A stretch of DNA of 64,000 nucleotides. Origin: Marinobacter fonticola (GTDB lineage Bacteria > Pseudomonadota > Gammaproteobacteria > Pseudomonadales > Oleiphilaceae). The notes below the pieces were generated by a model. The model had not been told where the DNA came from and made no database searches. It saw only the letters and a list, made by a program, of their open reading frames with translations. Each line of letters opens with the position of its first letter. Position 1 is the stretch's first letter. This document shows positions 1,143 to 13,096 of the stretch, one piece after another. The stretch covers positions 3,968,001 to 4,032,000 of the forward strand of contig NZ_CP043042.1 in NCBI RefSeq assembly GCF_008122265.1. The letters run 5' to 3'. Made by a program: the position numbers and the translations under genes.

Positions 1143-4100
1143 ATGAAACCCATGGTCGTTGGTGTAGCGGCGTCTGCAGGTGGGCTGGAGGCGCTGATTG
1201 GCGTGCTCAAAGGCTTGAGAAATATTGACGCGCTGACGGTGGTCATTGCCCAGCATCTGGCTCCGGATCACGAAAGTTTGCTGGCAACCCTGTTGTCGCG
1301 CGATAGCTCCATTCCAGTCAGAAACGCGGAGCATGGGCAACGCTTGGAAGCGGGCCAGATTGTCGTTATTCCCCCCGGCCACAATGCCACGATTGGCGAC
1401 GGGTGTCTGTTGCTGGAAGAAACCCACTCTTACGGCGTTCCGAAGCCTTCAGCTAACGCACTGTTCGTTTCGATCGCCGAGGAATATGGGGACCGCGGCA
1501 TCGGGGTTGTACTGTCTGGCACAGGCTCGGACGGAGCACGGGGTTGCCGCGAAATTAAAGCTCGTGACGGCTTCGTGCTGGTCCAGGAGCCGGAAACCGC
1601 CAAATATGGCGGCATGCCTTCCGCGGCTATCGAGACCGGCGCCGTTGATCGGGTGCTCAAGATCGAGGAGATCGGAGCGGAGCTCGAGCGCCTGGCCCGG
1701 CAGCATGACTCTTCAGAGAGGACCTCGTCCACCCGGCTTTCCGATGCGGGGGCCGCCGATATCTACAGCCTGCTGCGTAGCGAATACGGTGTTAATTTCG
1801 CCGAATACAAACCCAGCACCGTTAATCGACGCATCCTGCGCCGCATTGTCGCCACCAATACCTCGACTATCCCGGAATACCGACGTTATTTGAGCGATCA
1901 TCCGGAAGAGCTCGCTCTGCTTTACCAAGATCTGCTGATCTCGGTCACCGGTTTTTTTCGCGACCAGGATATTTATAAGGATCTTAAGCCCTATATCAAG
2001 CGCATCCTGGAAACGAAGAGCAAAGGGGATGAACTCCGCTTTTGGGTCGCCGGTTGCGCCACCGGCGAGGAAGCCTACAGCCTGGCAATCATGCTGGACC
2101 AAATTTTGGGCGGAGATTACGCTCACTACAAAGTCCAGATTTTCGCCACAGATATCGACAATCGCGCCCTGGACATCGCTCGCAAGGGTTTCTACGAGGA
2201 CGTAAGCCTCAGCAATATTCCCCAGGACGTACGACGCCGATATTTTCAGCCTATCGGCGACGGTTGTCTGGTCAACAAAGCCATTCGGGAAATGGTGATT
2301 TTTGCGCGCCACAACCTCAGCGCCGACCCGCCTTTTCTCAATATGGACATGATCGCCTGTCGTAACGTCATGATCTATTTTGGCACCCGCCTGCAGCAAC
2401 GGGTGCTGGGCACCTTCCATTACGCCCTCAAACCTGGCGGCGTCGTTTTTCTTGGTAAATCCGAGTCACTGCCGACCAGCAAGATCTTCGACGTTATCGA
2501 CGGCACCGTAAAGCTATTCCGGCGCAAGGACATCTCCAGCCAAAAAGTCCTGCGGGAGTTCGGGCGCGTCGATTTCGCCTCGCGCAAGTCCGAGCGAGCC
2601 CCCTCGGAGGAGCCGGAGCCGCCCAAACCCCTGGATGAACGCGTCAAGTCGTCGGTCAACGACTACCTGGTGAACACCGGTTTTGTCATTGACGACTTGT
2701 TGGACATCCGTTTCATCTACGGCGATATCAGCGCTATTTCCCAGGTCAAGGCGGGGAAACCCAGCCTTAACATCCAGAATCTGATCGCGCCGACCTATCA
2801 GTTCGAGCTTAAAAGCCTGATTTTCAAAGCGCGCAAGAATCCTGGTCTGAACCGTTCAAACCCGGTACATACCGACAATACGTCGGTGATTTTCGAGGTC
2901 ATTCCAGTGGCGCCGGATAAAACCAAAGAAAAACTCTATTTTGTGCGCTTCGAGCTGTTCGAACGTATGGATGCCAACAACAACGGCCATCAGCAAACCA
3001 ATGAACAGGTGGCCCAGTTGCAACACGAATTGGCGGTCAACCGGGAACATCTGCAGACCCTGATTGAGGAGCTTGAGACCTCCAATGAAGAACTGCAGTC
3101 GGTCAATGAAGAACTGCAATCATCCAATGAAGAATTGCAGAGTACCAATGAAGAACTGGAAACCTCGAATGAGGAACTGCAGTCGACCAACGAAGAACTG
3201 CTGACCGTCAACCAGGAGATGGAAGTAAAGACCGAAGAAATCGCTTCGCTGAATAGCGACCTGACAAACCTCCAGGACAGCCTGCCGCATCCGCTGCTCA
3301 TGGTGGATGACCAATACCAGATCCTGCATCACAATCAGGCTTGCCAGGAAATTTTCAACTTCGATTTATCGCTACGCGGCCGGCGTCTGAACAGCCTGGA
3401 TGGCCCCTACGATCTGCCGAATCTGGTTGCCATCGTCGAGGAAGCTCGGCGTGTAGATGGTGAGATAAACCGCCAAATCGTCGGCAAGAAGTCCTATTGG
3501 ATGAGCTGCACCCCCTGTAAGGACAACGATGGTCAACAGCAAGGCGCCGTCATTGTCTTTTGGAACAACACTGAACTACTCGACACCTACCGGCGACTGG
3601 ACGAGAGCGTGACCCAGTCCAACGTCCAGGGAAAGGCGTTGGAAGCCGCACAGCAAGGCATCGTTATCGTCGATGCCACCAAACCGACCATGCCGATCCT
3701 CTATATCAATAAAGCATTTACCCGTATTACTGGCTATTCGAAAGAAGAGGTGTTTGGTCGCAATTGCCGTTTCCTGCAAGGTGAAGGCACCGATAAGGCG
3801 ACCAGGAACGCGCTTCGTAAGGCGCTTAGCGATGGCCGGGAACACAGCTGTCATATACTCAACTACCGTAAGGATGGCTCGCCGTTCTACAACAATCTGA
3901 GCATTTCCCCCATCTTTGAAAACGGCAAGCTCACGCACTTTGTCGGCATCCAGAGCGACTTAACCAACATACTCGAAACCCAGCGTGAAAGCGCCTTCGC
4001 CCGATCAGTGTTCGAACACACGCAGGAGAGCATCCTGGTGCTCGATACTTCGCGGCAAGTCCAGTATGCCAATCCAGCGGCCTGCAACCTGTTTGGCATA

Positions 4101-5714
4101 CCTAACCGGCTAAGTGCCCACGATCGTAACCCCAACGCGGTCGATTTCAACCTGTTTAGCAAGCGCGATGATTTTGATGCGATCTGGAAGCATGTTGACA
4201 AACATGGCTTCTGGCAAGGCGAGATCGAGGAAGCAATAGATCACACGGATATTTCACTCCTGGTATCCGTCAACCGGATCATTGGGCAGGATATTCTCGA
4301 TGATCAGTTCGTACTCCAAGCCACCGACGTCAGCCTGTTGAAACAGAAAGAGCGACAGCTACAAAAACTGGCCACCTTTGATCAGTTGACGGAATTGCCC
4401 AACCGTCGTCTATTCAATACCCGGTTGAAAGAAGCCATCGCCCGAGCGGAGCGCGTGGACAAAACGTTCGCCCTGCTGTTCATGGACGTGGACAACTTCA
4501 AGCGGATCAATGATACCCTCGGCCACAAGGTCGGCGACGAGGTGCTCCTGCATTTCACGAAAACCGTAAAAAAAATGACCCGAGAAAATGACACCTTTGC
4601 CCGTATGAGTGGCGATGAGTTCGTGTTGATCCTCGATGGTGTCGAAGACGCATCCGATGCACAGCATTTCTCCCAGCGCATCGTCGACACCATCTCCCGC
4701 CCCTACCGGACAGAAGACGGCGACCTACTGCTTTCCGTAAGTATCGGTGTGGCCCTCTTCCCCACAGACGGCTACAACCCCGAAACCCTGGTCCGCAATG
4801 CCGACATGGCCATGTACCGCGCCAAACAAAGCGGTAAGGCCAAGGTAGCCTTCGTCGAGCCGGGGCGCAGCAACGAACTGTGGCAGCAAATGCAGATCGA
4901 AGGCGAGCTGCGTAAGGGCCTGATCGATGGTGAAGATATCGGCCTTTATCTGGTTTACCAGCCCATTTTTGATGTCTCGGACAGTAACCGCCTCTACGGG
5001 TTTGAGGCGCTAATACGTTGGAATCACCCATCGTTCGGCCCACTGCAGCCAGACGAATTTCTGCCTCTGGCCCGCTCCGTCGGCTTCGGGCGTGATTTGG
5101 ACACTTGGGTCTTCAACGAGTTTCTCAAGCAGTATGCCGAGTGGGTTATCAAATGCCCGATGGCAGAAACGCTACAGTACGCAATTAACATCGATCCTTC
5201 GAGCAGCACCCTGCTGAACCATTCTCAAATAAGCGCATTGCTGGCCGAATTGGACAACAACCTAAATCGTCCTCGTCTGACCTTTGAAATTACTGAAAAC
5301 GCGCTAATCAACCGGTCTGAAGACCTGGTAAATGGCCTTCAATCCCTGCATGACATGAATACCACCATAGCCATCGATGACTTTGGTAACGGCTATTCCA
5401 ACTTCGGCTATATCACAGATTTCGCCTCAATCCGCCAGATCAAGTTGGACCGCAGCTTGATCCAGGATATCGAGCAGAACCTGGACAAGCTCAAGCGCAT
5501 GCGTGCGATCATCCGCATGCTGAATGAGATTGGTTACACGACAGTGATCGAGGGCATTGAAACGCAGCAACAGCTAGCGCTGCTCAACGACGCCGGACAC
5601 GATTTCGTGCAAGGTTTCCACCTGTCGACGCCGCTGGACGCCTCCGATGCCGAACGCCTGATCGTCAAGATGGCATCCGAAAGACAGACCGCGTCAGACA
5701 AACTGGAAGAATAA
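1143..5714 (+). CDS. CheB-CheR-PAS-LOV-PAS-GGDEF-EAL hybrid signalling protein
   Basis: This 1523-residue multidomain protein is probably cytoplasmic, since no membrane segment is seen. Residues 1-185 are a CheB methylesterase domain with triad S11, H38 and D130 (SAGG, AQHL, GTGSDG). Residues 205-460 are a CheR methyltransferase ([14 protein letters not shown] for SAM binding). Residues 620-706 form a coiled coil of repeated S/TNEELQ units. A PAS domain follows, then a LOV-type PAS at about 828-943 with GRNCRFLQG (Cys875), another PAS, GGDEF at 1076-1236 and EAL at 1255-1513. The GGDEF motif is SGDEF (S1156), with an RxxD inhibitory site at 1147-1150. The EAL catalytic set looks intact (E1288, DDFGNG, IEGIE). 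I chose the ATG at 1143 because CheB domains begin just here; an in-frame TTG at 1053 adds an unsupported 30-residue leader. No chemotaxis genes are adjacent, so a stand-alone light- or redox-responsive c-di-GMP role is inferred. Confidence 0.93.
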
Positions 5715-5930: not shown

Positions 5931-6941
5931 TCAGCCTTCCGGCGCTCGCCCCGTACTGCCACGCACAATCAGCTGGGTCTTGAGCGTCTGATCGAAGGGC
6001 ACGTTGCGGTCCTTGAGAATATCCAGCAGCAGGCGCATGGCCGTGCGGCCGATGGCCTGGCGGGGCTGGTGCACGGTGGTCAGTTCCGGCTCGCAGTATT
6101 GGCTGAAGCCGATATCGTCGAAGCCGACGACCGAGAGCTGGCCCGGCACCGTTACGCCCTGATCCCGCGCGGCTTTGAGCACACCAATGGCCATCTCGTC
6201 GTTCTGGCAGAAGATCGCCGTCGGGCGCTGGCTGTCACGTTGCAGCAGGATGCGACCCTGCTCATAGCCGGAATGAAAGCTGAAGTCGCCTTCCAGTACG
6301 CCGTCGGGCGGACTCTCGAGCCCGGCCCCTTCCAGACCGCGCCTGTAGCCCGCCAACCGGTCCTTGCAGATGGGGTTCCGGCCAGGGCCGGTGATGGTGG
6401 CAATTGCCCGGTGGCCCAGTGAGATCAGGTATTCGGTGGCCTTGTGGGCGGCCTGTTCGTTATCGATATGGATGGTAGGCAGGGACAGGTTGTCGAAGTA
6501 TTCGCAGGCCACCACCAGGGGGAAACCGGAGTCCGCCTGGCGCTCCTTGACCAAGGCCCTGGGCACTTCCGTAGTGAGCAGGATGATGCCGTCCGCCTGG
6601 TTCGAAGGCACGAGGTTGAAGTACGACTTCACCCGCTCGGGATTATGCCCGGCGTCGCCCAGCAGCACTTGGTAGCCGGCTTGGTGAGCCACGGATTCGA
6701 GCCCGCTGATCACCTCGGAGAAGAACGGATTGGCGATATCCGGCAGGATCACCACGATGGTGCGCGATTCACTGCGGCGCAAGTTACGGGCCGCGGCATT
6801 CAGCGAATAGCCCACCTCGGCCACCGCCTGAGCCACTCTTTGGCGCGTAGCATCGGAGACTTTTTCGGGACTGGCAAGCGCGCGGGACACGGTGGCCGTG
6901 GAGCAATTCGCCGCCTTGGCAACGTCTTTTATCGTCGGCAT
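5931..6941 (-). CDS. LacI-family sugar operon repressor
   Basis: This is a 336-residue LacI/GalR-type regulator. The start was placed at the ATG at 6941 because the protein then opens with the canonical helix-turn-helix (MPTIKDVAKAANCSTATVSRAL) and matches the family length; the longer frame to 7076 adds a non-homologous leader. A hinge (LNAAARNLRRSES) is followed by a periplasmic-binding-like sensor domain (VVILPDIANPFFSEVISGLE and VVGFDDIGFSQYCEPELTTV). It is divergent from the sugar operon that begins at 7257. Two LacI-type palindromes lie in the shared intergenic region, so it very probably represses that operon and itself. The inducer is unknown. Confidence 0.93.
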   Translation of the reverse strand: MPTIKDVAKAANCSTATVSRALASPEKVSDATRQRVAQAVAEVGYSLNAAARNLRRSESRTIVVILPDIANPFFSEVISGLESVAHQAGYQVLLGDAGHNPERVKSYFNLVPSNQADGIILLTTEVPRALVKERQADSGFPLVVACEYFDNLSLPTIHIDNEQAAHKATEYLISLGHRAIATITGPGRNPICKDRLAGYRRGLEGAGLESPPDGVLEGDFSFHSGYEQGRILLQRDSQRPTAIFCQNDEMAIGVLKAARDQGVTVPGQLSVVGFDDIGFSQYCEPELTTVHQPRQAIGRTAMRLLLDILKDRNVPFDQTLKTQLIVRGSTGRAPEG

Positions 6942-7078
6942 GGAATGGCTTTTGTTATGCGAGTTGCGCGATGTTATCACAGTCTTCACGAGCCCCGAGT
7001 CTCCCAAGCCAGCCGCTATTTCAATGCCCCTACCGCTATTCCAACCCGGCACCAGCGGTGTCAGCTTGGTCATCATAA

Positions 7079-7092
7079 TGCAATCGATTACA
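7079..7092. promoter_or_regulatory. LacI-family operator O2 (repressor-proximal)
   Basis: TGCAATCGATTACA differs from a perfect 14-bp palindrome at one position and fits the LacI-family consensus TGNAANCGNTTNCA. It lies 138 bp upstream of the repressor start, so it is placed for autoregulation and as an auxiliary site for looping to the operator at 7205. Confidence 0.75.
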
Positions 7093-7176
7093 TAAATCTA
7101 AACACCAACGCTGTGTCTTGCTTTAAAAAACCTATTTTATTCGCTTACTACCGTTAAAAAGTTCCTTTATTAAGGG

Positions 7177-7205
7177 TTGACGATCAAATTTTAGTCTGCT
7201 GGAAT
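7177..7205 (+). promoter_or_regulatory. Sigma70-type promoter of the sugar operon
   Basis: A -35 TTGACG (7177-7182) and a -10 TGGAAT (7200-7205) are separated by 17 bp. The predicted start of transcription near 7212 falls in the middle of the 7205-7218 operator, which would explain repression by steric blocking. Confidence 0.55.
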
Positions 7206-7218
7206 GTAATCGATTACA
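7205..7218. promoter_or_regulatory. LacI-family operator O1 (perfect palindrome)
   Basis: TGTAATCGATTACA is a perfect 14-bp palindrome matching TGNAANCGNTTNCA. It overlaps the predicted transcription start of the sugar operon. Its centre is 126 bp from the centre of the O2 site, which is 12.0 helical turns at 10.5 bp per turn. Confidence 0.85.
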
Positions 7219-7256
7219 AGCAATAAGCCAAAACAACAACAGCAAGGCGAATCCTC

Positions 7257-8315
7257 ATGAAAACCATACAAGGGCCAGGGCTCTTCCTGGCACAGTACGT
7301 CAGCGACGAAGCGCCTTTCGACTCATTGCCGACCCTGGCGGCGTGGGCTGCAAAGCTTGGCTTCAAGGGCGTACAGATTCCCACCTGGGACGAGCGATTG
7401 TTCGATCTCAAGCGTGCCGCCGAAGATCTCGATTATTGCCGGTCCATCCAGACCCTGTTGAGCGAACACGGCGTGGTGATCACCGAGCTGTCTACCCACC
7501 TACAGGGTCAGCTGGTGGCGGTGCATCCGGTTTATGATGACGTGTTCGACGGTTTTGCACCGGCCCACCTGCACGGCAACCCGGAGGCCCGTCAGGCCTG
7601 GGCGGTGGATCAGGTCAAGTTGGCCGCCAAGGCGAGCAAGAACCTCGGACTCAAGGCGGTCGCGACCTTCTCCGGCGCCCTGCTCTGGCCCTTTCTCTAT
7701 CCTTGGCCACAGCGCCCGGCGGGCCTGGTGGAAGCGGGGTTCGAGGAGATGGCCCAACGCTGGCTTCCGATTCTGGACGTGTACGAAGAAGCCGGTGTCG
7801 ACCTCTGCTACGAGATTCATCCCGGCGAAGACCTGCACGACGGCGCCACCCTCGAGCGTTTCCTTAAGGCCACGAACCATCACCCGCGCTGCTGCATTCT
7901 GTACGACCCGTCCCACTTGCTGCTGCAGCAGCTCGACTACCTGGCCTTCATTGACCACTTCCACGACCGTATTCGCATGTTTCACGTCAAGGACGCCGAG
8001 TTTAATCCCACGGCCCTGCAAGGCGTTTATGGCGGCTACGAATCCTGGATCGACCGTGCCGGCCGCTTCCGTTCCCTCGGCGACGGCCAGGTGGACTTCA
8101 AGGGCATCTTCTCCCGGCTGACGCAGTACGATTTCGGCGGCTGGGCGGTGATCGAGTGGGAGTGTGCCATGAAGCATCCCGAACAAGGCGCCGCCGAAGG
8201 CGCACGTTTCGTGGACGAGCACATCATCCGTGTCACCGACCGCGCCTTCGACGATTTCGCCGATGCCGGCGTGGACGACGCCGGCAACCGGCGCTTGCTG
8301 GGTCTGAAAGACTGA
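7257..8315 (+). CDS. Sugar phosphate isomerase/epimerase family TIM-barrel enzyme
   Basis: This 352-residue protein belongs to the xylose-isomerase-like TIM barrel superfamily. The metal-binding positions expected of it can be seen in CYEIHPGEDL, ILYDPSH, FHVKDAE and VIEWE, carrying the acidic and histidine ligands. It is the first gene of the LacI-controlled operon and is followed after 13 bp by a Gfo/Idh dehydrogenase. The same pairing occurs in oxidative sugar pathways such as E. coli YcjR/YcjS, where a dehydrogenase makes a 3-keto sugar and a barrel enzyme epimerises or cleaves it. By analogy this enzyme may act on a keto-sugar, but the sequence does not identify the substrate. The start ATG is supported by a nearby AAGGCGA. 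Confidence 0.88.
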   Translation: MKTIQGPGLFLAQYVSDEAPFDSLPTLAAWAAKLGFKGVQIPTWDERLFDLKRAAEDLDYCRSIQTLLSEHGVVITELSTHLQGQLVAVHPVYDDVFDGFAPAHLHGNPEARQAWAVDQVKLAAKASKNLGLKAVATFSGALLWPFLYPWPQRPAGLVEAGFEEMAQRWLPILDVYEEAGVDLCYEIHPGEDLHDGATLERFLKATNHHPRCCILYDPSHLLLQQLDYLAFIDHFHDRIRMFHVKDAEFNPTALQGVYGGYESWIDRAGRFRSLGDGQVDFKGIFSRLTQYDFGGWAVIEWECAMKHPEQGAAEGARFVDEHIIRVTDRAFDDFADAGVDDAGNRRLLGLKD

Positions 8316-8328
8316 GGATGGTATCGCC

Positions 8329-9501
8329 ATGACAAGTAATAACCGTATTCGGCTAGGCATGATCGGCGGCGGCCAGGGCGCTTTTATCGGTGGCGTCCAC
8401 CGCTACGCAGCCCGACTGGATGACCGCTATGAACTGGTTGCCGGGGTCTTCAGTGCCCGGCCCGAGGTCAATCGCGCGTCAGCCGAGGAACTCCGGGTCG
8501 ACCCGGCGCGTTGCTACGACGATGTACCGGCGCTGATTGCCGGCGAGTCCGGCCGCGAAGACGGCATCCAGGCCGTAGCCATCGTCACCCCCAATCACCT
8601 GCACTTCGAGGCCGCAAAAGCCTGCCTGGAGGCGGGCCTGCACGTCATCTGCGAAAAGCCGATGACCCTCACCGCAGACGAAGCGGAAACCCTGGCAGAT
8701 CTGGCCCAACAGAAACAGGTCCAGTTTCTGCTCACTCATCCCTATGTCGGCTACCCGCTGATCCAGCACGCGCGAGAAATGGTCAAGCGCGGCGACCTGG
8801 GCAAACTGCGGATGGTTCATGTGGAATATGTGCAGGAATGGCTGGCCGAAGCGCCGGGACCGGATAATAAACAAGCGGAGTGGAGACTGGATCCCGAGCG
8901 CGCCGGTGCGGCGGGTTGCCTGGGCGATATCGGCACCCATGCCTATCAGCTCTCTGCCTTTATTTCCGGCCTCACCCTGGATGCGGTCAGTGCCGACATC
9001 AGCGCGATGGTTGAAGGCCGCCAGCTCGATGACAACGTCCACGCGCTGCTGCGCTATACCTCCGGCGCCAAGGGCATGCTTTGGGCCAGCCAGTGCGCGC
9101 CGGGCTTCGAGAACGGCCTGCGCATCCGTGTCGTCGGTGAACGGGCCTCAATGGAGTGGGGCCAGGAGAATCCCAACGAACTCTGGTTCGCCCCCCTCAA
9201 CGCACCGCGCCAGCGGATTACCCGGCGCGATGACTGGCTGAGCGACGATATCAACCGCAGCGTGCGGATTCCCGGCGGCCACCCGGAAGGCTATATCGAA
9301 GCCTTCGCCAATCTATATCAGGCCCTGGCGGATGCCTTGGAGGGCGATACCGCAGCCTCGCTGCCCGATGCCAACACCGGCATCGACGGTCTGCACTTCA
9401 TCAGCGCGGTACTACGTTCCAACCAGGCGGATGGCGCTTGGGCCACGGTGCCGCCACCGGTCGGCAAGGAACGGCGCTCAGGGAGACGCTTCGATGACTG
9501 A
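8329..9501 (+). CDS. Gfo/Idh/MocA family sugar dehydrogenase
   Basis: This 390-residue enzyme starts with a Rossmann glycine-rich loop ([17 protein letters not shown]) and carries the EKP signature (CEKPMTL) near residue 110. Catalytic region [10 protein letters not shown], near residue 203, is the usual GxxxxH segment of the C-terminal domain. It probably oxidises a sugar or sugar derivative with NAD(P), with the upstream barrel enzyme acting on the product; this is inferred from operon context. Its last 8 bases overlap the start of the ABC ATPase gene, indicating translational coupling. No sugar kinase is in the operon, which fits oxidation of an unphosphorylated substrate imported by the ABC system. 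Confidence 0.9.
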
Positions 9502-11020
9502 CCCCATTATCCGCACCCACAACCTGTGCAAGTCATTTGGCCCGGTCAAGGTGCTCAAGGGCATCTCGCTGGACATTCAACCCGGCGAAGTCCTGGGTAT
9601 CCTGGGCGAGAACGGCGCGGGCAAGTCCACCTTGCTCAAGCTCATCAGCGGGGTCTACACGCCCACCAGCGGGAGCATCGAGATTCAGGGCGAGCGCTTC
9701 GATCAATTGGACCCGATCCTGTCCCGGCACAAAGGCATCGCCATGATTCCCCAGGAATTCAACCTGGTGCCGACACTCAAGGTGTACGAGAACGTGTTCC
9801 TCGGTCAAGAACGCCGGCGCAAGGGGCTGCTGGACAAGGCCGCCATGCGCGCCGAAACCGCCCAAGTGCTTGAATCCCTCAAGGTCAATCTCAATCCCAA
9901 CGCCACCATCGGCGAACTCAGTGTCGCAGAAAAGCAGATGGTGGAAGTGGCGCGCGTGCTGGTGAACGACGCCCGTGTGGTCATCCTGGACGAGCCCACC
10001 ACCGTGCTCACCGAGCGCGAAGTCACGGTGCTGTTCGATGTGGTTCGCGCCATGCAGGAACGCGGCGTCGCCGTGCTGTTCATCTCCCACAAGCTCAAGG
10101 AGGTGAAAAACCTCTGCCAGCGCCTGTTGATCCTGCGGGACGGCGAGCAGGTGGAGCTGTGCGATGTAGCCGACCTGAACGAAGACGACATGGCCCGCAA
10201 AATGGTCGGGCGCGAACTGTCCCAGACCTTCCCGGAGAAGCAGGACCATCCTACCTCCGTCGCGCTGGAGCTGAAGAATCTCAACATCCCCGGCCTGGTC
10301 CGGGATGTCAGCCTGAAACTGCACCACGGCCAGGTATTGGGATTGTCCGGGCTGGTGGGCTCGGGTCGCACGGAAATCGCCGAGGCCCTGATGGGCCTGC
10401 GCAAACATAGCAAAGAAAAACTCGTCATCAACGGCAAGGAACCGGTGATCCGTTCGGCCAACGACGCCCATGCGGCGGGTTTGGCCTACCTGTCGGAAGA
10501 CCGGCAGGGCAAAGGTCTGGTGATGAACTTCAGCCTCACCGAGAACATCACCCTGCTCAGTCTGAAGAAGTACACCGCCGGGCTGATCAATCGCGCCCAG
10601 GAACGCCGACAAGCCCGGGATTTCCAATCCAAATTGGCGATCAAGGCCGCCAGCCTGGAAACCCATGTGGGCCTGCTCAGTGGCGGCAACCAGCAGAAGG
10701 TGTACCTGGCCAAACTGCTGGATATCGACCCGGACATCCTGATTCTGGACGAGCCCACCCGCGGTATCGACGTCAACACCAAGCGCGAGATCTATTACCT
10801 GACTCGCGGCCTGGCCGAACAGGGCAAGGCGGTGATCGTGATTTCCTCGGAGCTGGAAGAAATCATCGGCCTGTGCGATCCGGTGCTGGTGGTGCGTGAG
10901 GGGCGCATTGCGGCACAACTCACGGGCGACCAGATCAACGAAGAAGACATCATGCTTTATGCCGCCGGCGCGCGGGAGACCGCTTCCGGAACAACAGAAC
11001 AACAAGGAATAACCCCATGA
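9494..11020 (+). CDS. Ribose-type (CUT2) sugar ABC transporter ATPase, duplicated NBD
   Basis: This 508-residue protein contains two fused nucleotide-binding domains, as in RbsA/XylG/MglA. The first has Walker [10 protein letters not shown] at 38-46, the signature [15 protein letters not shown] and Walker [10 protein letters not shown]. The second has the usual degenerate Walker A (GLVGSGRTE), [15 protein letters not shown] and [12 protein letters not shown]. The ATG at 9494 was chosen because the protein then begins like RbsA and has a ribosome site (GGGAGA); the frame continues upstream inside the previous gene without support. It couples by overlap to both neighbours and energises import with the permease at 11017 and the binding protein at 12128. 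Confidence 0.95.
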
Positions 11021-12003
11021 ACCAGGCCAGACTTGCCGGCGCCCGGCTCTCCGACCGCCTCCGCAACAGCGGGCTCGATTTCAGCATCCTGGCGCCACTG
11101 ATCGCGCTGATTGTGCTGCTGGTGATCTCGTCGCTCGCCAGCGAATATTTTCTCGACCTGCGCAACCTGACCAACATAGCCCGCCAGGTGTCCTATACCG
11201 GCATCATCGCCATTGGCGTCACCTTCGTCATTATCGCCGCTGGCATCGACCTCTCGGTGGGCTCGATGGTGGCGCTAGTAGGCGTGGTACTGGTGTATAC
11301 CATCAACCAGTTCGCCGACCCGGTGCAGGGCGTCATATTCGGCCTGGCCATGGCGGTCCTGAGTGGCGCCTTGTTTGGGCTCATCAACGGCGTGCTGGTG
11401 ACTTGGGGGCGAATCACTCCCTTTATAGCCACCCTGGCTACCATGTCGATCTACCGCTCGCTGGCGCTGTATTTCTCCGATGCGGGGGAGATGGTCTCGA
11501 CGAATTCTCTGTTCCCCGAGATCGGCGGCGGTTACGCCCTGGGCCTGCCGATTCCGGTCTGGACCTTCCTGATCATTGCCGTGCTGGCCCACATCCTGTT
11601 GGCGCACACGCCCTTTGGCAGGCATCTGTGTGCCGTGGGCTCCAACGCCCAAGTGGCGCGCTATTCGGGCATCCGGGTGCCACGGATCATTCTGACCACG
11701 TTCATCATTGCCGGGGCCTGCGTGGGAATTTCATCCATCATGCTGGCCTCCCGCCTGAACTCCATCAGCCCCAGCGACGCTGGGGTGTTCTACGAGCTGG
11801 ATGCCATTGCCGCCGTGGTGATTGGCGGCACCGCCCTGTCGGGTGGTCGCGGCTCGATCTGGGGCACCGTTCTGGGCGCACTGATCCTGGGCGTGATCAA
11901 TAACATGCTCAACATGCTGGGCGTCTCCCCCTACCTGCAGGGGCTGGTGAAAGGCGGCGTCATCCTGGTGGCGGTGCTGATGCAGTACAAGCAAAGCCGT
12001 TAG
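11017..12003 (+). CDS. Ribose-type sugar ABC transporter permease
   Basis: This 328-residue inner-membrane protein has about 8-10 hydrophobic segments and the RbsC-family motifs [22 protein letters not shown] and [15 protein letters not shown]. Its ATG overlaps the ATPase stop codon (ATGA). It forms the membrane channel, presumably as a homodimer as in RbsC. It belongs to the CUT2 class, whose substrates are monosaccharides and related polyols. Confidence 0.95.
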
Positions 12004-12127
12004 CGATCTAAAACGCCGTTAGCTCTCTGAAAACGCAGTGAACAACAAAAAACCATGGCGAAAGCCATTCGATCGCACCGATACACCTGTGTCGGATGAC
12101 AACAACAAGACAGAAAGGATCAAGACT

Positions 12128-13096
12128 ATGGGACTCAAGCGACTGATCAAAGGCACCCTGTTCGTCGGGGCGCTGTTACTGACTCCGTTTGCCGCCAGCC
12201 ATGCGGACTACCGCATCGGTGTCAGCGTACCGGCCGCTGACCACGGCTGGACCGCCGGGCTGCTCTGGTGGGCCCAGAAAGCCGCCGACGACCTGGGCAA
12301 GAAGTATCCGGACACCGAATTCTTCGTGGTCGCGGCCAATTCCGGCACCAAGCAGGTGGCGGATGTGGAAGACCTGATGGTCAAGCAGATCGATGCGCTG
12401 GTCATCCTGCCCCACAACCCGGCCACCCTCCAGCAGGTCATTTCCGAGGCCTACGACAGTGGCATCTACACCGTGGTTGTCGACCGGGAACTGGAAACCC
12501 CCGCGCAAAACGTCTTCATCGCCGGCGACAACGCGGGCATGGGCCGCGAGGCCGCCAAGTACATGGCCGAGAAGATGGATGAAAGCGGCAATATCATCGT
12601 CATCGAGGGCATGCCAATCCCCATCAACGCCCAGCGTGTGAACGCCTTCAACGAGGTCATGGCCCAATACCCCGATATCAAGATCCTCGACTCCCAGCCG
12701 TCGGACTGGTCGCCGCAAAAAGCCCTGCGTGTGATGGAGAACCTGCTGCGCAAGCATCACGATATCGATGCAGTTTGGGCCGGGGACGACGACGTGCTCA
12801 AGGCCGTCATGCAGGCTATCGAGGAAGCTGGCCGTGACGACATCAAGCTGGTCGTCGGCGGTGGCGGCTCCAAGGATGTGATCGGCATGATCAAGGATGA
12901 CCATCCGGTGGTGCAGGCTACGGTGACCTACCCGCCATCAATGGTGGCCTCCGCCATCGCCCTGGCCAATACCGGCGTGCGCGGCAAGAACCTGGGCGAT
13001 ATGTACCACCATGTACCGGCCCGCATCGTGCTGGATGCCGAGCTGATCACCGAGGAGAACGCCAAGAACTTCTACGTGGAAGATGCGGCTTACTGA
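12128..13096 (+). CDS. Periplasmic sugar-binding protein of the CUT2 ABC importer
   Basis: This 322-residue RbsB-like protein begins with a cleavable signal peptide (basic MGLKRLIKG, hydrophobic core, AASHA before DYRIG). The mature part has typical type I periplasmic binding protein features such as VNAFNEVMAQYPDI, AVWAGDDDVLKAV and IGMIKDDHPVVQATVTYPP. The ATG at 12128 follows GAAAGGA; a longer frame from 12038 lacks a signal-like N-terminus. Unusually for this transporter class, the gene is last in the operon, after a 124-bp gap that may allow its own expression level. A hairpin follows at 13106. Confidence 0.93.
   Translation: MGLKRLIKGTLFVGALLLTPFAASHADYRIGVSVPAADHGWTAGLLWWAQKAADDLGKKYPDTEFFVVAANSGTKQVADVEDLMVKQIDALVILPHNPATLQQVISEAYDSGIYTVVVDRELETPAQNVFIAGDNAGMGREAAKYMAEKMDESGNIIVIEGMPIPINAQRVNAFNEVMAQYPDIKILDSQPSDWSPQKALRVMENLLRKHHDIDAVWAGDDDVLKAVMQAIEEAGRDDIKLVVGGGGSKDVIGMIKDDHPVVQATVTYPPSMVASAIALANTGVRGKNLGDMYHHVPARIVLDAELITEENAKNFYVEDAAY

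What the first reader, a model, noticed from the sequence alone, without database searches (positions are those of the whole stretch)
3625..3972. LOV photoreceptor domain embedded in a CheB-CheR-GGDEF-EAL protein
The second PAS unit carries GRNCRFLQG with Cys875, [18 protein letters not shown] and FVGIQSDLT. These are the flavin-binding and adduct-forming signatures of LOV blue-light receptors. LOV-GGDEF-EAL proteins are known, and CheB-CheR-PAS hybrids are known, but their union in one polypeptide would couple light to protein methylation/demethylation domains and c-di-GMP turnover together. I do not know this architecture as a characterised system.
Basis: partly seen in the sequence, partly recalled or inferred. 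Interest (0 to 1): 0.82.

Follow-up and report, generated by a model that had tools for sequence, protein, structure and literature searches.

The report
Blue-light sensor fused to signalling enzymes
A marine bacterium carries one long protein that joins a probable blue-light sensor to four signalling enzymes, and an almost unchanging stretch beside the methyl-adding enzyme may be what that enzyme modifies.

Summary
Window 1143-5714 (+) encodes a 1523-aa protein: CheB-CheR-PASlike-coil-PAS-LOV-PAS-GGDEF-EAL. Residues 828-945 are a LOV domain by sequence (E 2e-34 to a solved LOV domain) and predicted fold (TM 0.92-0.95, rmsd 0.8-1.0 A to LOV-core chains). Flavin binding is untested.

The architecture is not unique. 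Of 120 listed relatives, the 31 best (query included) all keep the LOV cysteine and terminal glutamine; nearly all keep the catalytic motifs of all four enzymes (one lacks the N-terminus). Of the other 89, 78 have Asp at the cysteine position. The LOV form is rare and patchy: 2 of 6 congeneric genomes, one conjugative Shewanella plasmid. Ten searches of an open-access library found no paper on the union.

The coil after CheR is the best-conserved region measured. In 61 non-redundant CheB-CheR fusions picked without using the coil, its exposed Glu-Glu pairs are nearly invariant; it averages 17 acidic and 0.1 basic residues in 51. In sampled genomes it sits in CheR proteins; a few metagenomic PAS-coil-PAS proteins lack CheR. 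I propose, unproven, that it is the built-in substrate of the fused CheR/CheB.

Verdict: new variant of a known kind.

The parts
1143..5714 (+). CDS, 1523 aa, CheB-CheR-PASlike-coil-PAS-LOV-PAS-GGDEF-EAL (an upstream TTG at 1053 is also in frame)
   Evidence: G004 orthologue 86% identical, full length
1158..1685 (+). CheB methylesterase domain (res 6-181), no receiver domain; S11, H38, D130
   Evidence: Pfam 9.2e-51; PDB CheB 6ymz 3.4e-19; of 32 LOV-set rows S and H 31 (one gap), D 30 (one gap, one G)
1767..2507 (+). CheR methyltransferase (res 209-455)
   Evidence: Pfam 3.3e-54; PDB 5ftw 1.9e-32; motif residues 31-32 of 32
2640..2969 (+). degenerate PAS-like domain (res 500-609), no Pfam domain above cut-off
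   Evidence: AlphaFold2 model ma43e89bce445; most of the 50 Foldseek matches listed are PAS/LOV domains, E 2.5e-3 to 4e-2
2997..3281 (+). single predicted helix res 619-713 with the heptad array xNEELQ[ST] (res 642-692 = 3066-3218)
   Evidence: block pLDDT 90-98 except its ends; conservation; 17 D/E, 0 K/R in 51 residues
3261..3575 (+). PAS domain (res 707-811)
   Evidence: PAS_4 / PAS_10
3624..3977 (+). LOV domain (res 828-945); adduct Cys875 at 3765-3767, Gln937
3990..4322 (+). PAS_8-type domain between LOV and GGDEF (Pfam 954-992; limits 950-1060 are my estimate from the model), joined to LOV by a helix
   Evidence: helix 127-145 of the 815-1075 model
4371..4838 (+). GGDEF domain with SGDEF A-site and RxxD I-site
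   Evidence: Pfam 1.6e-49; of 32 rows, D, E and the acidic residues 32, I-site R 31, first G is S in 29
4941..5633 (+). EAL domain, catalytic-motif residues present; loop DFGNG instead of DFGTG
   Evidence: Pfam 2.9e-58; motif residues 30-32 of 32; PDB 5m3c 1.7e-82, 4rnh 6.9e-74 for GGDEF-EAL

Best explanation
A soluble, probably dimeric blue-light receptor. SHOWN (sequence, predicted fold, conservation): a canonical LOV domain between two PAS domains, at a conserved distance from GGDEF-EAL domains with intact catalytic motifs, behind a CheB-CheR pair with intact motifs and a long acidic helix. INFERRED: blue light forms the Cys875-FMN adduct; the Gln937 switch passes through the helix into the last PAS and changes GGDEF-EAL output. 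By analogy with SL2 I commit to light raising net c-di-GMP hydrolysis (about 0.5 for that direction). CheR/CheB add a slow, reversible methyl mark that sets gain; whether on chemoreceptors in trans or on the protein's own coil is open (see the section on the most novel reading).
For: LOV identity: (6rhg TMt 0.95, rmsd 0.8; 1n9n TMt 0.94, rmsd 0.9; best match to the whole piece is a LOV-PAS tandem, 6pps). Constraint: LOV cysteine kept in 31/31 members down to 39% identity. LOV motif to DxLT is 203-208 residues in 31/31; LOV end to the next PAS motif is 18 in all 15 that my regex measured, 16 not measured. Enzymes. On the CheB-CheR tree 29 LOV rows form one side of a branch (SH-aLRT 100). SL2, a LOV-GGDEF-EAL protein, hydrolyses c-di-GMP in blue light (PMC8846402, PMC5812497; passages). 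LOV-GGDEF proteins are light-switched through helical linkers (PMC10396304, passages).
Against: No spectroscopy or assay. SGDEF instead of GGDEF, and a non-T EAL loop residue (N/S/A/V/K in 31 of 32 of the LOV set; T in 90 of 94 others), could mean altered or lost activity of one domain. The PAS between LOV and GGDEF is the least conserved domain between the two closest orthologues (38% of residues differ), so coupling may be loose. P0010 and L036 (Methylophaga) have GQSCLILQG, losing the Asn and Arg of the motif. Light direction is by analogy only.
Confidence: 0.62

Rival explanations
1. LOV fold that binds flavin but senses redox or is a vestige; light is not the physiological signal.
For: The LOV-like PASd of RmcA lacks the cysteine yet is implicated in light and phenazine responses (PMC8846402, passages). 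Motif decay in Methylophaga. No photobiology tested.
Against: Cys and Gln 31/31 kept while identity falls to 39%; two relatives whose LOV-like motif lost the Cys (P0055, P0082) lie in another lineage.
Confidence: 0.2
2. CheB/CheR act on chemoreceptors in trans: light tunes chemotaxis adaptation while GGDEF-EAL tunes c-di-GMP.
For: The own genome has many receptors (25 MCP-signal matches, 23 over cut-off) and four CheB frames besides the two fusions. A PAS-containing MCP gene lies 1.4 kb from the Shewanella plasmid copy, with a transposase between.
Against: No chemotaxis gene among the eight neighbouring proteins scanned, one to the left and seven to the right. The CheR lacks three residues of a loop present in 1bc5 (that this loop binds the receptor pentapeptide is recalled).
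Confidence: 0.3
3. The acidic coil is only a dimerisation/signalling helix and its conservation is structural.
For: Predicted as one 95-residue helix between PAS-like domains. Coils also occur in PAS-coil-PAS proteins without CheR (P0216, P0246, P0286 scanned, P0260 read). MCP ORFs do not carry the array (0 of 23).
Against: Exposed b/c Glu pairs are better conserved than the a/d core (0.15 against 0.50 bits over 641-691, permutation p 0.03). The acid is uncompensated (17.4 D/E, 0.1 K/R per 51), unusual, by general knowledge, for a structural coil.
Confidence: 0.45

Closest known systems
SL2 of Synechococcus elongatus (LOV-GGDEF-EAL)
   Same: LOV cysteine photoreceptor with GGDEF-EAL; blue light stimulates c-di-GMP hydrolysis (PMC8846402, PMC5812497, passages)
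   Different: Described in those passages as LOV, GGDEF and EAL only; no CheB, CheR or acidic coil named
LOV-activated diguanylate cyclases (LadC)
   Same: LOV coupled by a helical linker to GGDEF (PMC10396304, passages)
   Different: LOV joined directly to GGDEF in those passages; here a PAS intervenes and EAL, CheB and CheR are added
'Two-component system CheB/CheR fusion proteins' (JGI name)
   Same: CheB-CheR-PASlike-coil-PAS core with the same heptad coil; many with GGDEF-EAL
   Different: 78 of 89 listed non-family rows have Asp, in an ordinary PAS motif, at the LOV-Cys position; others end in histidine kinases or PAS
LOV-PAS-histidine kinase (structures 6pps, 6ph4)
   Same: LOV followed by PAS through a helix; best Foldseek matches to residues 815-1075
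   Different: Kinase output; no methylation domains in the deposited constructs' titles
DosP (PAS-GGDEF-EAL)
   Same: PAS-GGDEF-EAL half
   Different: Oxygen sensor through haem (PMC8846402 passage on PdeO; that PdeO is DosP is recalled); no LOV, no CheB-CheR

Membership tests
LOV photoreceptor domain | GxNCRFLQ motif with adduct cysteine | tested here: met
   [10 protein letters not shown]875; Cys 31/31 in family
LOV photoreceptor domain | FMN-pocket residues beyond the motif | tested here: met
   N907, N917, Q937 31/31; R892 present in the window protein though loose in the family; position list recalled
LOV photoreceptor domain | LOV/PAS fold | tested here: met
   model pLDDT about 90 over most LOV blocks; TMt 0.92-0.95 to LOV-core chains
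LOV photoreceptor domain | binds flavin and forms a light adduct | not testable with these tools
   needs purified protein
CheB/CheR fusion protein | CheB and CheR domains in one chain with catalytic residues | tested here: met
Bifunctional GGDEF-EAL | GGDEF A-site and EAL catalytic residues | tested here: met
   SGDEF with RxxD; EAL residues by position; which positions are catalytic is recalled
Bifunctional GGDEF-EAL | cyclase and phosphodiesterase activity | not testable with these tools
   needs assays
SL2-type LOV-GGDEF-EAL | LOV joined to GGDEF-EAL without other domains | tested here: not met
   a PAS lies between LOV and GGDEF, CheB-CheR in front
Chemotaxis CheB response regulator | N-terminal receiver domain | tested here: not met
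   no receiver match; the protein begins with the methylesterase domain
Chemoreceptor-type methylation helix (for the coil) | same heptad-phased Glu-Glu array in MCPs | tested here: not met
   0 of 23 MCP ORFs have three or more phased sites

The most novel reading that the evidence does not exclude
The heptad array [N]EEL[QE][ST][small] after CheR is the in-built substrate of the fused CheR and CheB: an internal, methylatable adaptation helix. Methyl esters would neutralise a strongly self-repelling acidic coil (about 34 negative charges in a dimer) and so retune how PAS/LOV signals reach the output, giving a one-protein sensor with memory. If so, it would hold for the large CheB/CheR fusion family, and the light-gated member here would let one trigger it with light.
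Probability: 0.3. Interest if true: 0.88.

Novelty: new variant of a known kind. Interest (0 to 1): 0.6.

Why it matters
It is a natural way to put methylation enzymes and c-di-GMP turnover under blue light in one chain. What CheB/CheR fusion proteins methylate is, to my knowledge (recalled), unsettled, and they are common: 74 of 359 sampled genomes of the phylum hold a match to the CheB-CheR query. The coil gives a specific candidate substrate with named residues, and the LOV gives a switch, so the question becomes directly testable.

Tried and rejected
Considered and rejected: (1) LOV as a generic PAS_9: the best PDB and fold matches are LOV domains. (2) A private oddity of one genome: 31 listed members with the LOV motif. 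(3) A dead remnant: motifs intact in each domain; between the two closest orthologues 41% of codons differ silently and 14% change the residue. (4) Regulation of the neighbouring sugar cluster: gene and LacI are shared with G004 and not with the other four congeners, but nothing links them mechanistically, so I make no claim. (5) Coil identical to chemoreceptor methylation helices: not met. (6) G788, where CheB-CheR and the coil are in separate ORFs: a 537-aa ORF lies between and the pieces look like one interrupted gene, so it is not evidence for a substrate in trans.

Led nowhere or needed correction: the search for related loci with P0001 found no relative; with A1 it used patterns inside CheR and the coil, so its 80 loci are biased toward the coil and I kept them out of the main conservation test (the biased result, points the same way: b/c 0.77/0.50, a/d 0.85/0.92 bits). 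In one search P0116 was wrongly labelled LOV by a loose regex (the match lies in its EAL end); corrected. In some searches my CheR regex missed true CheR proteins (P0209, P0219; six loci). The genomes were chosen because they already held a CheB/CheR locus. Literature: ten answered searches listed no paper on LOV with CheB-CheR and GGDEF-EAL or on the coil as a substrate; I read passages of four papers and saw the rest only as listings. The library is open-access only; a 2016 PNAS survey of LOV diversity that I recall is not held.

Full report
WHAT IS THERE. The open frame from ATG 1143 to 5714 (+) encodes 1523 residues. Pfam gives CheB 6-181 (9e-51), CheR_N and CheR 209-455 (3e-54), PAS 707-811, PAS_9 839-941, PAS_8 954-992, GGDEF 1077-1232 (2e-49) and EAL 1267-1497 (3e-58). 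It matches the YtvA-family and blue-light kinase models of NCBIfam, below their whole-protein cut-offs, and the best solved sequences are LOV domains, led by 9vf7 (E 2e-34). An AlphaFold2 model of residues 815-1075 from 12 sequences (mean pLDDT 78.9, pTM 0.52; LOV blocks mostly about 90) matches chains that hold just the LOV core with TM (target) 0.92-0.95 and rmsd 0.8-1.0 A; chains with extra helices fit less well (TM 0.72-0.85). The best match to the whole piece is a LOV-PAS tandem (6pps, TM 0.40-0.42). Residues 500-609, which no Pfam domain covers above cut-off, are predicted PAS-like with weak support (Foldseek E 2.5e-3 or worse).

IS THE LOV INTACT. Using AsLOV2 contact positions, which I recall rather than took from a call, the window protein has Asn874, Cys875, Arg876, Leu878, Gln879, Arg892, Asn907, Asn917, Phe933, Gly935 and Gln937. 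In 31 relatives (P0001-P0031, query included) Cys, Gln879, Asn907, Asn917 and Gln937 are 31 of 31; Asn874 30, Arg876 29, Gly935 30; the Arg892 column is R16 K7 S4 A2 G2, and four further recalled contact columns vary.

FAMILY. A search over the whole length listed the best 120 of 7759 proteins. P0001-P0031 (39% identity and up; P0028 is 1232 aa and lacks the N-terminus) all have the LOV cysteine. Of the other 89, at that position 7 have Cys, 78 Asp, and one each Ala, Leu, Gly and Ser. A tree of CheB-CheR (73 rows, quick LG+G4) puts 29 LOV rows on one side of a branch (SH-aLRT 100) and needs 4 changes of the label, at least 3 forced by starred branches. P0030/P0031, P0084 and a group of about 1700-residue proteins carry LOV separately. 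The GGDEF-EAL tree gives 5 changes, including a wrong label for P0116. So the LOV variant is a coherent lineage, and LOV has probably entered or left this scaffold more than once.

DISTRIBUTION. In its genus this genome and G004, of six, hold the full-length protein. In a class sample of 369 genomes 8 match at E<=1e-150, and the LOV form was seen in two, G000 and G359. In 390 genomes of the order 8 match at 1e-200 and only the own genome showed LOV. In 398 of the phylum 8 match at 1e-200 and again only the own genome did. The samples overlap, few candidates per genome were scored, and LOV was judged by motif, so these are rough. Among 74 CheR ORFs of 80 genome-contig loci one (Methylophaga, L036) has a LOV motif, a degraded one. 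A full-length LOV copy lies on a conjugative Shewanella plasmid amid insertion sequences; it is the only one of the 5000 best plasmid records with 80% coverage. In G004 the neighbourhood is conserved: a Gfo/Idh gene on one side, a LacI regulator and sugar genes on the other. The LacI is 90% identical there and 36% or less in the other four congeners.

ENZYMES. In 32 rows (31 plus the plasmid copy): CheB Ser and His 31 (one gap), Asp 30; CheR motif residues 31-32; GGDEF acidic and DE residues 32, I-site Arg 31; EAL motif positions 30-32. Differences from the 94 other rows: SGDEF in 29 of 32 against 9 of 94, and the EAL loop residue T in 1 of 32 against 90 of 94. Solved relatives of each part were found by sequence. 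Linker spacing is tight: LOV motif to DxLT 203-208 residues in 31 of 31; LOV end to the next PAS motif 18 in all 15 that the regex measured.

THE COIL. The invariant columns of alignment A1 drew attention to residues 629-705. To avoid choosing on the coil I searched with residues 1-460 only (best 120 of 7977 listed) and used all 120, 61 after redundancy filtering on the CheB-CheR part. 119 of 120 fit a strict coil pattern and P0133 has a variant. Mean column entropy: CheB 1.54, CheR 1.61, residues 470-620 2.75, PAS 2.61, coil 0.54 bits. By heptad position in 648-686: a (Asn) 0.15, b (Glu) 0.07, c (Glu) 0.02, d (Leu) 0.62, e 0.22, f 0.96 (Ser/Ala/Thr), g 1.39. Over 641-691, b/c average 0.15 and a/d 0.50 (permutation p 0.03). 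Fully invariant columns: coil 14 of 51, CheB 22 of 176, CheR 36 of 247, linker 1 of 151, PAS 0 of 94. The coil averages 17.4 acidic and 0.1 basic residues in 51. Between G000 and G004, 47% of its codons differ silently and 3% change the residue, against 41% and 14% for the whole gene: purifying selection. It is predicted as one helix, 619-713. The heptad register is my assignment.

WHERE THE COIL OCCURS. Of 96 CheB-CheR matches (one covering CheR only) in 359 phylum genomes, 91 have a coil match downstream on the same strand, 90 within 700 bases. The five without: G877 runs off its contig as a coil begins; G985 has a shorter, divergent coil and G784:C103 only a remnant of two repeats; G960 is a 609-aa frame near its contig end and G940 a 497-aa CheB-CheR frame with no coil. 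The 91st is G788, where an ORF lies between. All eight coil hits that had no CheB-CheR match are known relatives (G612, G1110) or sit in frames with a CheR motif. Among 1955 ORFs of 200 aa or more in the loci held, three or more phased Glu-Glu sites occur in 133 of 140 ORFs with my CheR motif, 0 of 23 MCP ORFs and 6 of 1792 others; all six have a CheR motif under a wider pattern. The loci are enriched for CheR, but their flanks supply the 1792. A query limited to proteins of 220-700 aa, too short for CheB plus CheR plus coil, still listed mostly CheR proteins (93 of 120 by my count of the Pfam column). Some of the 27 without look like fragments; others look like complete PAS-coil-PAS proteins with no CheR, which argues against a strict link. 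Searching one (P0246) in 18 genomes of other phyla, chosen because they hold CheB/CheR loci, the 20 loci fetched of 30 matches were all CheR ORFs. In one (L216) a free-standing CheB gene overlaps the start of the CheR-PAS-coil-PAS gene: CheB, CheR and coil stay together even when unfused.

READING. The best-supported account is a blue-light receptor controlling c-di-GMP, with a methylation module attached. Uncompensated acid at exposed positions, Asn at the a positions and small residues near the Glu pairs are what I would expect of a helix whose stability is tuned by Glu methylation. That is inference: the chemoreceptors examined do not show the array, some coil proteins lack CheR, and no methylation has been shown.

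NOVELTY. Each half is known: SL2 for LOV-GGDEF-EAL (PMC8846402 and PMC5812497, passages), LadC (PMC10396304, passages), and CheB/CheR fusions by database name. I saw no paper on the union in ten answered searches of the open-access library. The proteins sit in public databases under names such as 'EAL domain-containing protein'.

Noticed in passing
L021 (own genome, about C1:469.5k, -): A second LOV-like protein, REC-PAS-PAS-LOV(GRDCRLLQG)-GGDEF-EAL-REC by reading only; its motif Asn is Asp and the terminal Gln appears replaced (GIISD).
   Followed up: partly
L132 (own genome C1:3105838-3106131, -): A BLUF domain (E 3.4e-25) in a 197-aa frame: another probable blue-light input in the same genome.
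   Followed up: no
L017 (own genome C1:1346367-1351013, -): Paralogue, 1642-aa frame, 31% identical over residues 5-1499, without the LOV motif.
   Followed up: partly
L191 (G788): A CheB-CheR frame and a coil-PAS frame separated by a 537-aa ORF, apparently one gene interrupted by an insertion.
   Followed up: partly
L216:1074-3589: Free-standing CheB gene overlapping the start of a CheR-PAS-coil-PAS gene.
   Followed up: yes
L035 (Shewanella sp. LC6 plasmid): LOV-type copy on a conjugative plasmid between transposases, with a PAS-containing chemoreceptor gene 1.4 kb downstream.
   Followed up: partly
L036, P0010 (Methylophaga): LOV motif decayed to GQSCLILQG although Cys and Gln remain: possible altered photochemistry.
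   Followed up: no
window 5931-13096: LacI regulator, xylose-isomerase-like, Gfo/Idh and ABC transporter genes beside the LOV gene; the LacI and the LOV gene are shared with G004 but not with four other congeners.
   Followed up: partly
window 5376-5450 (EAL loop, residues 1412-1436): DFGxG position is N/S/A/V/K in 31 of 32 LOV-type proteins, T in 90 of 94 others.
   Followed up: no
L026 (G305), L126 (G437): the genome search reports one stop codon (TAG, TGA) inside the matched span of these non-LOV relatives.
   Followed up: no
P0216, P0246, P0260, P0286: Short PAS-coil-PAS proteins with the same acidic coil and no CheR.
   Followed up: partly
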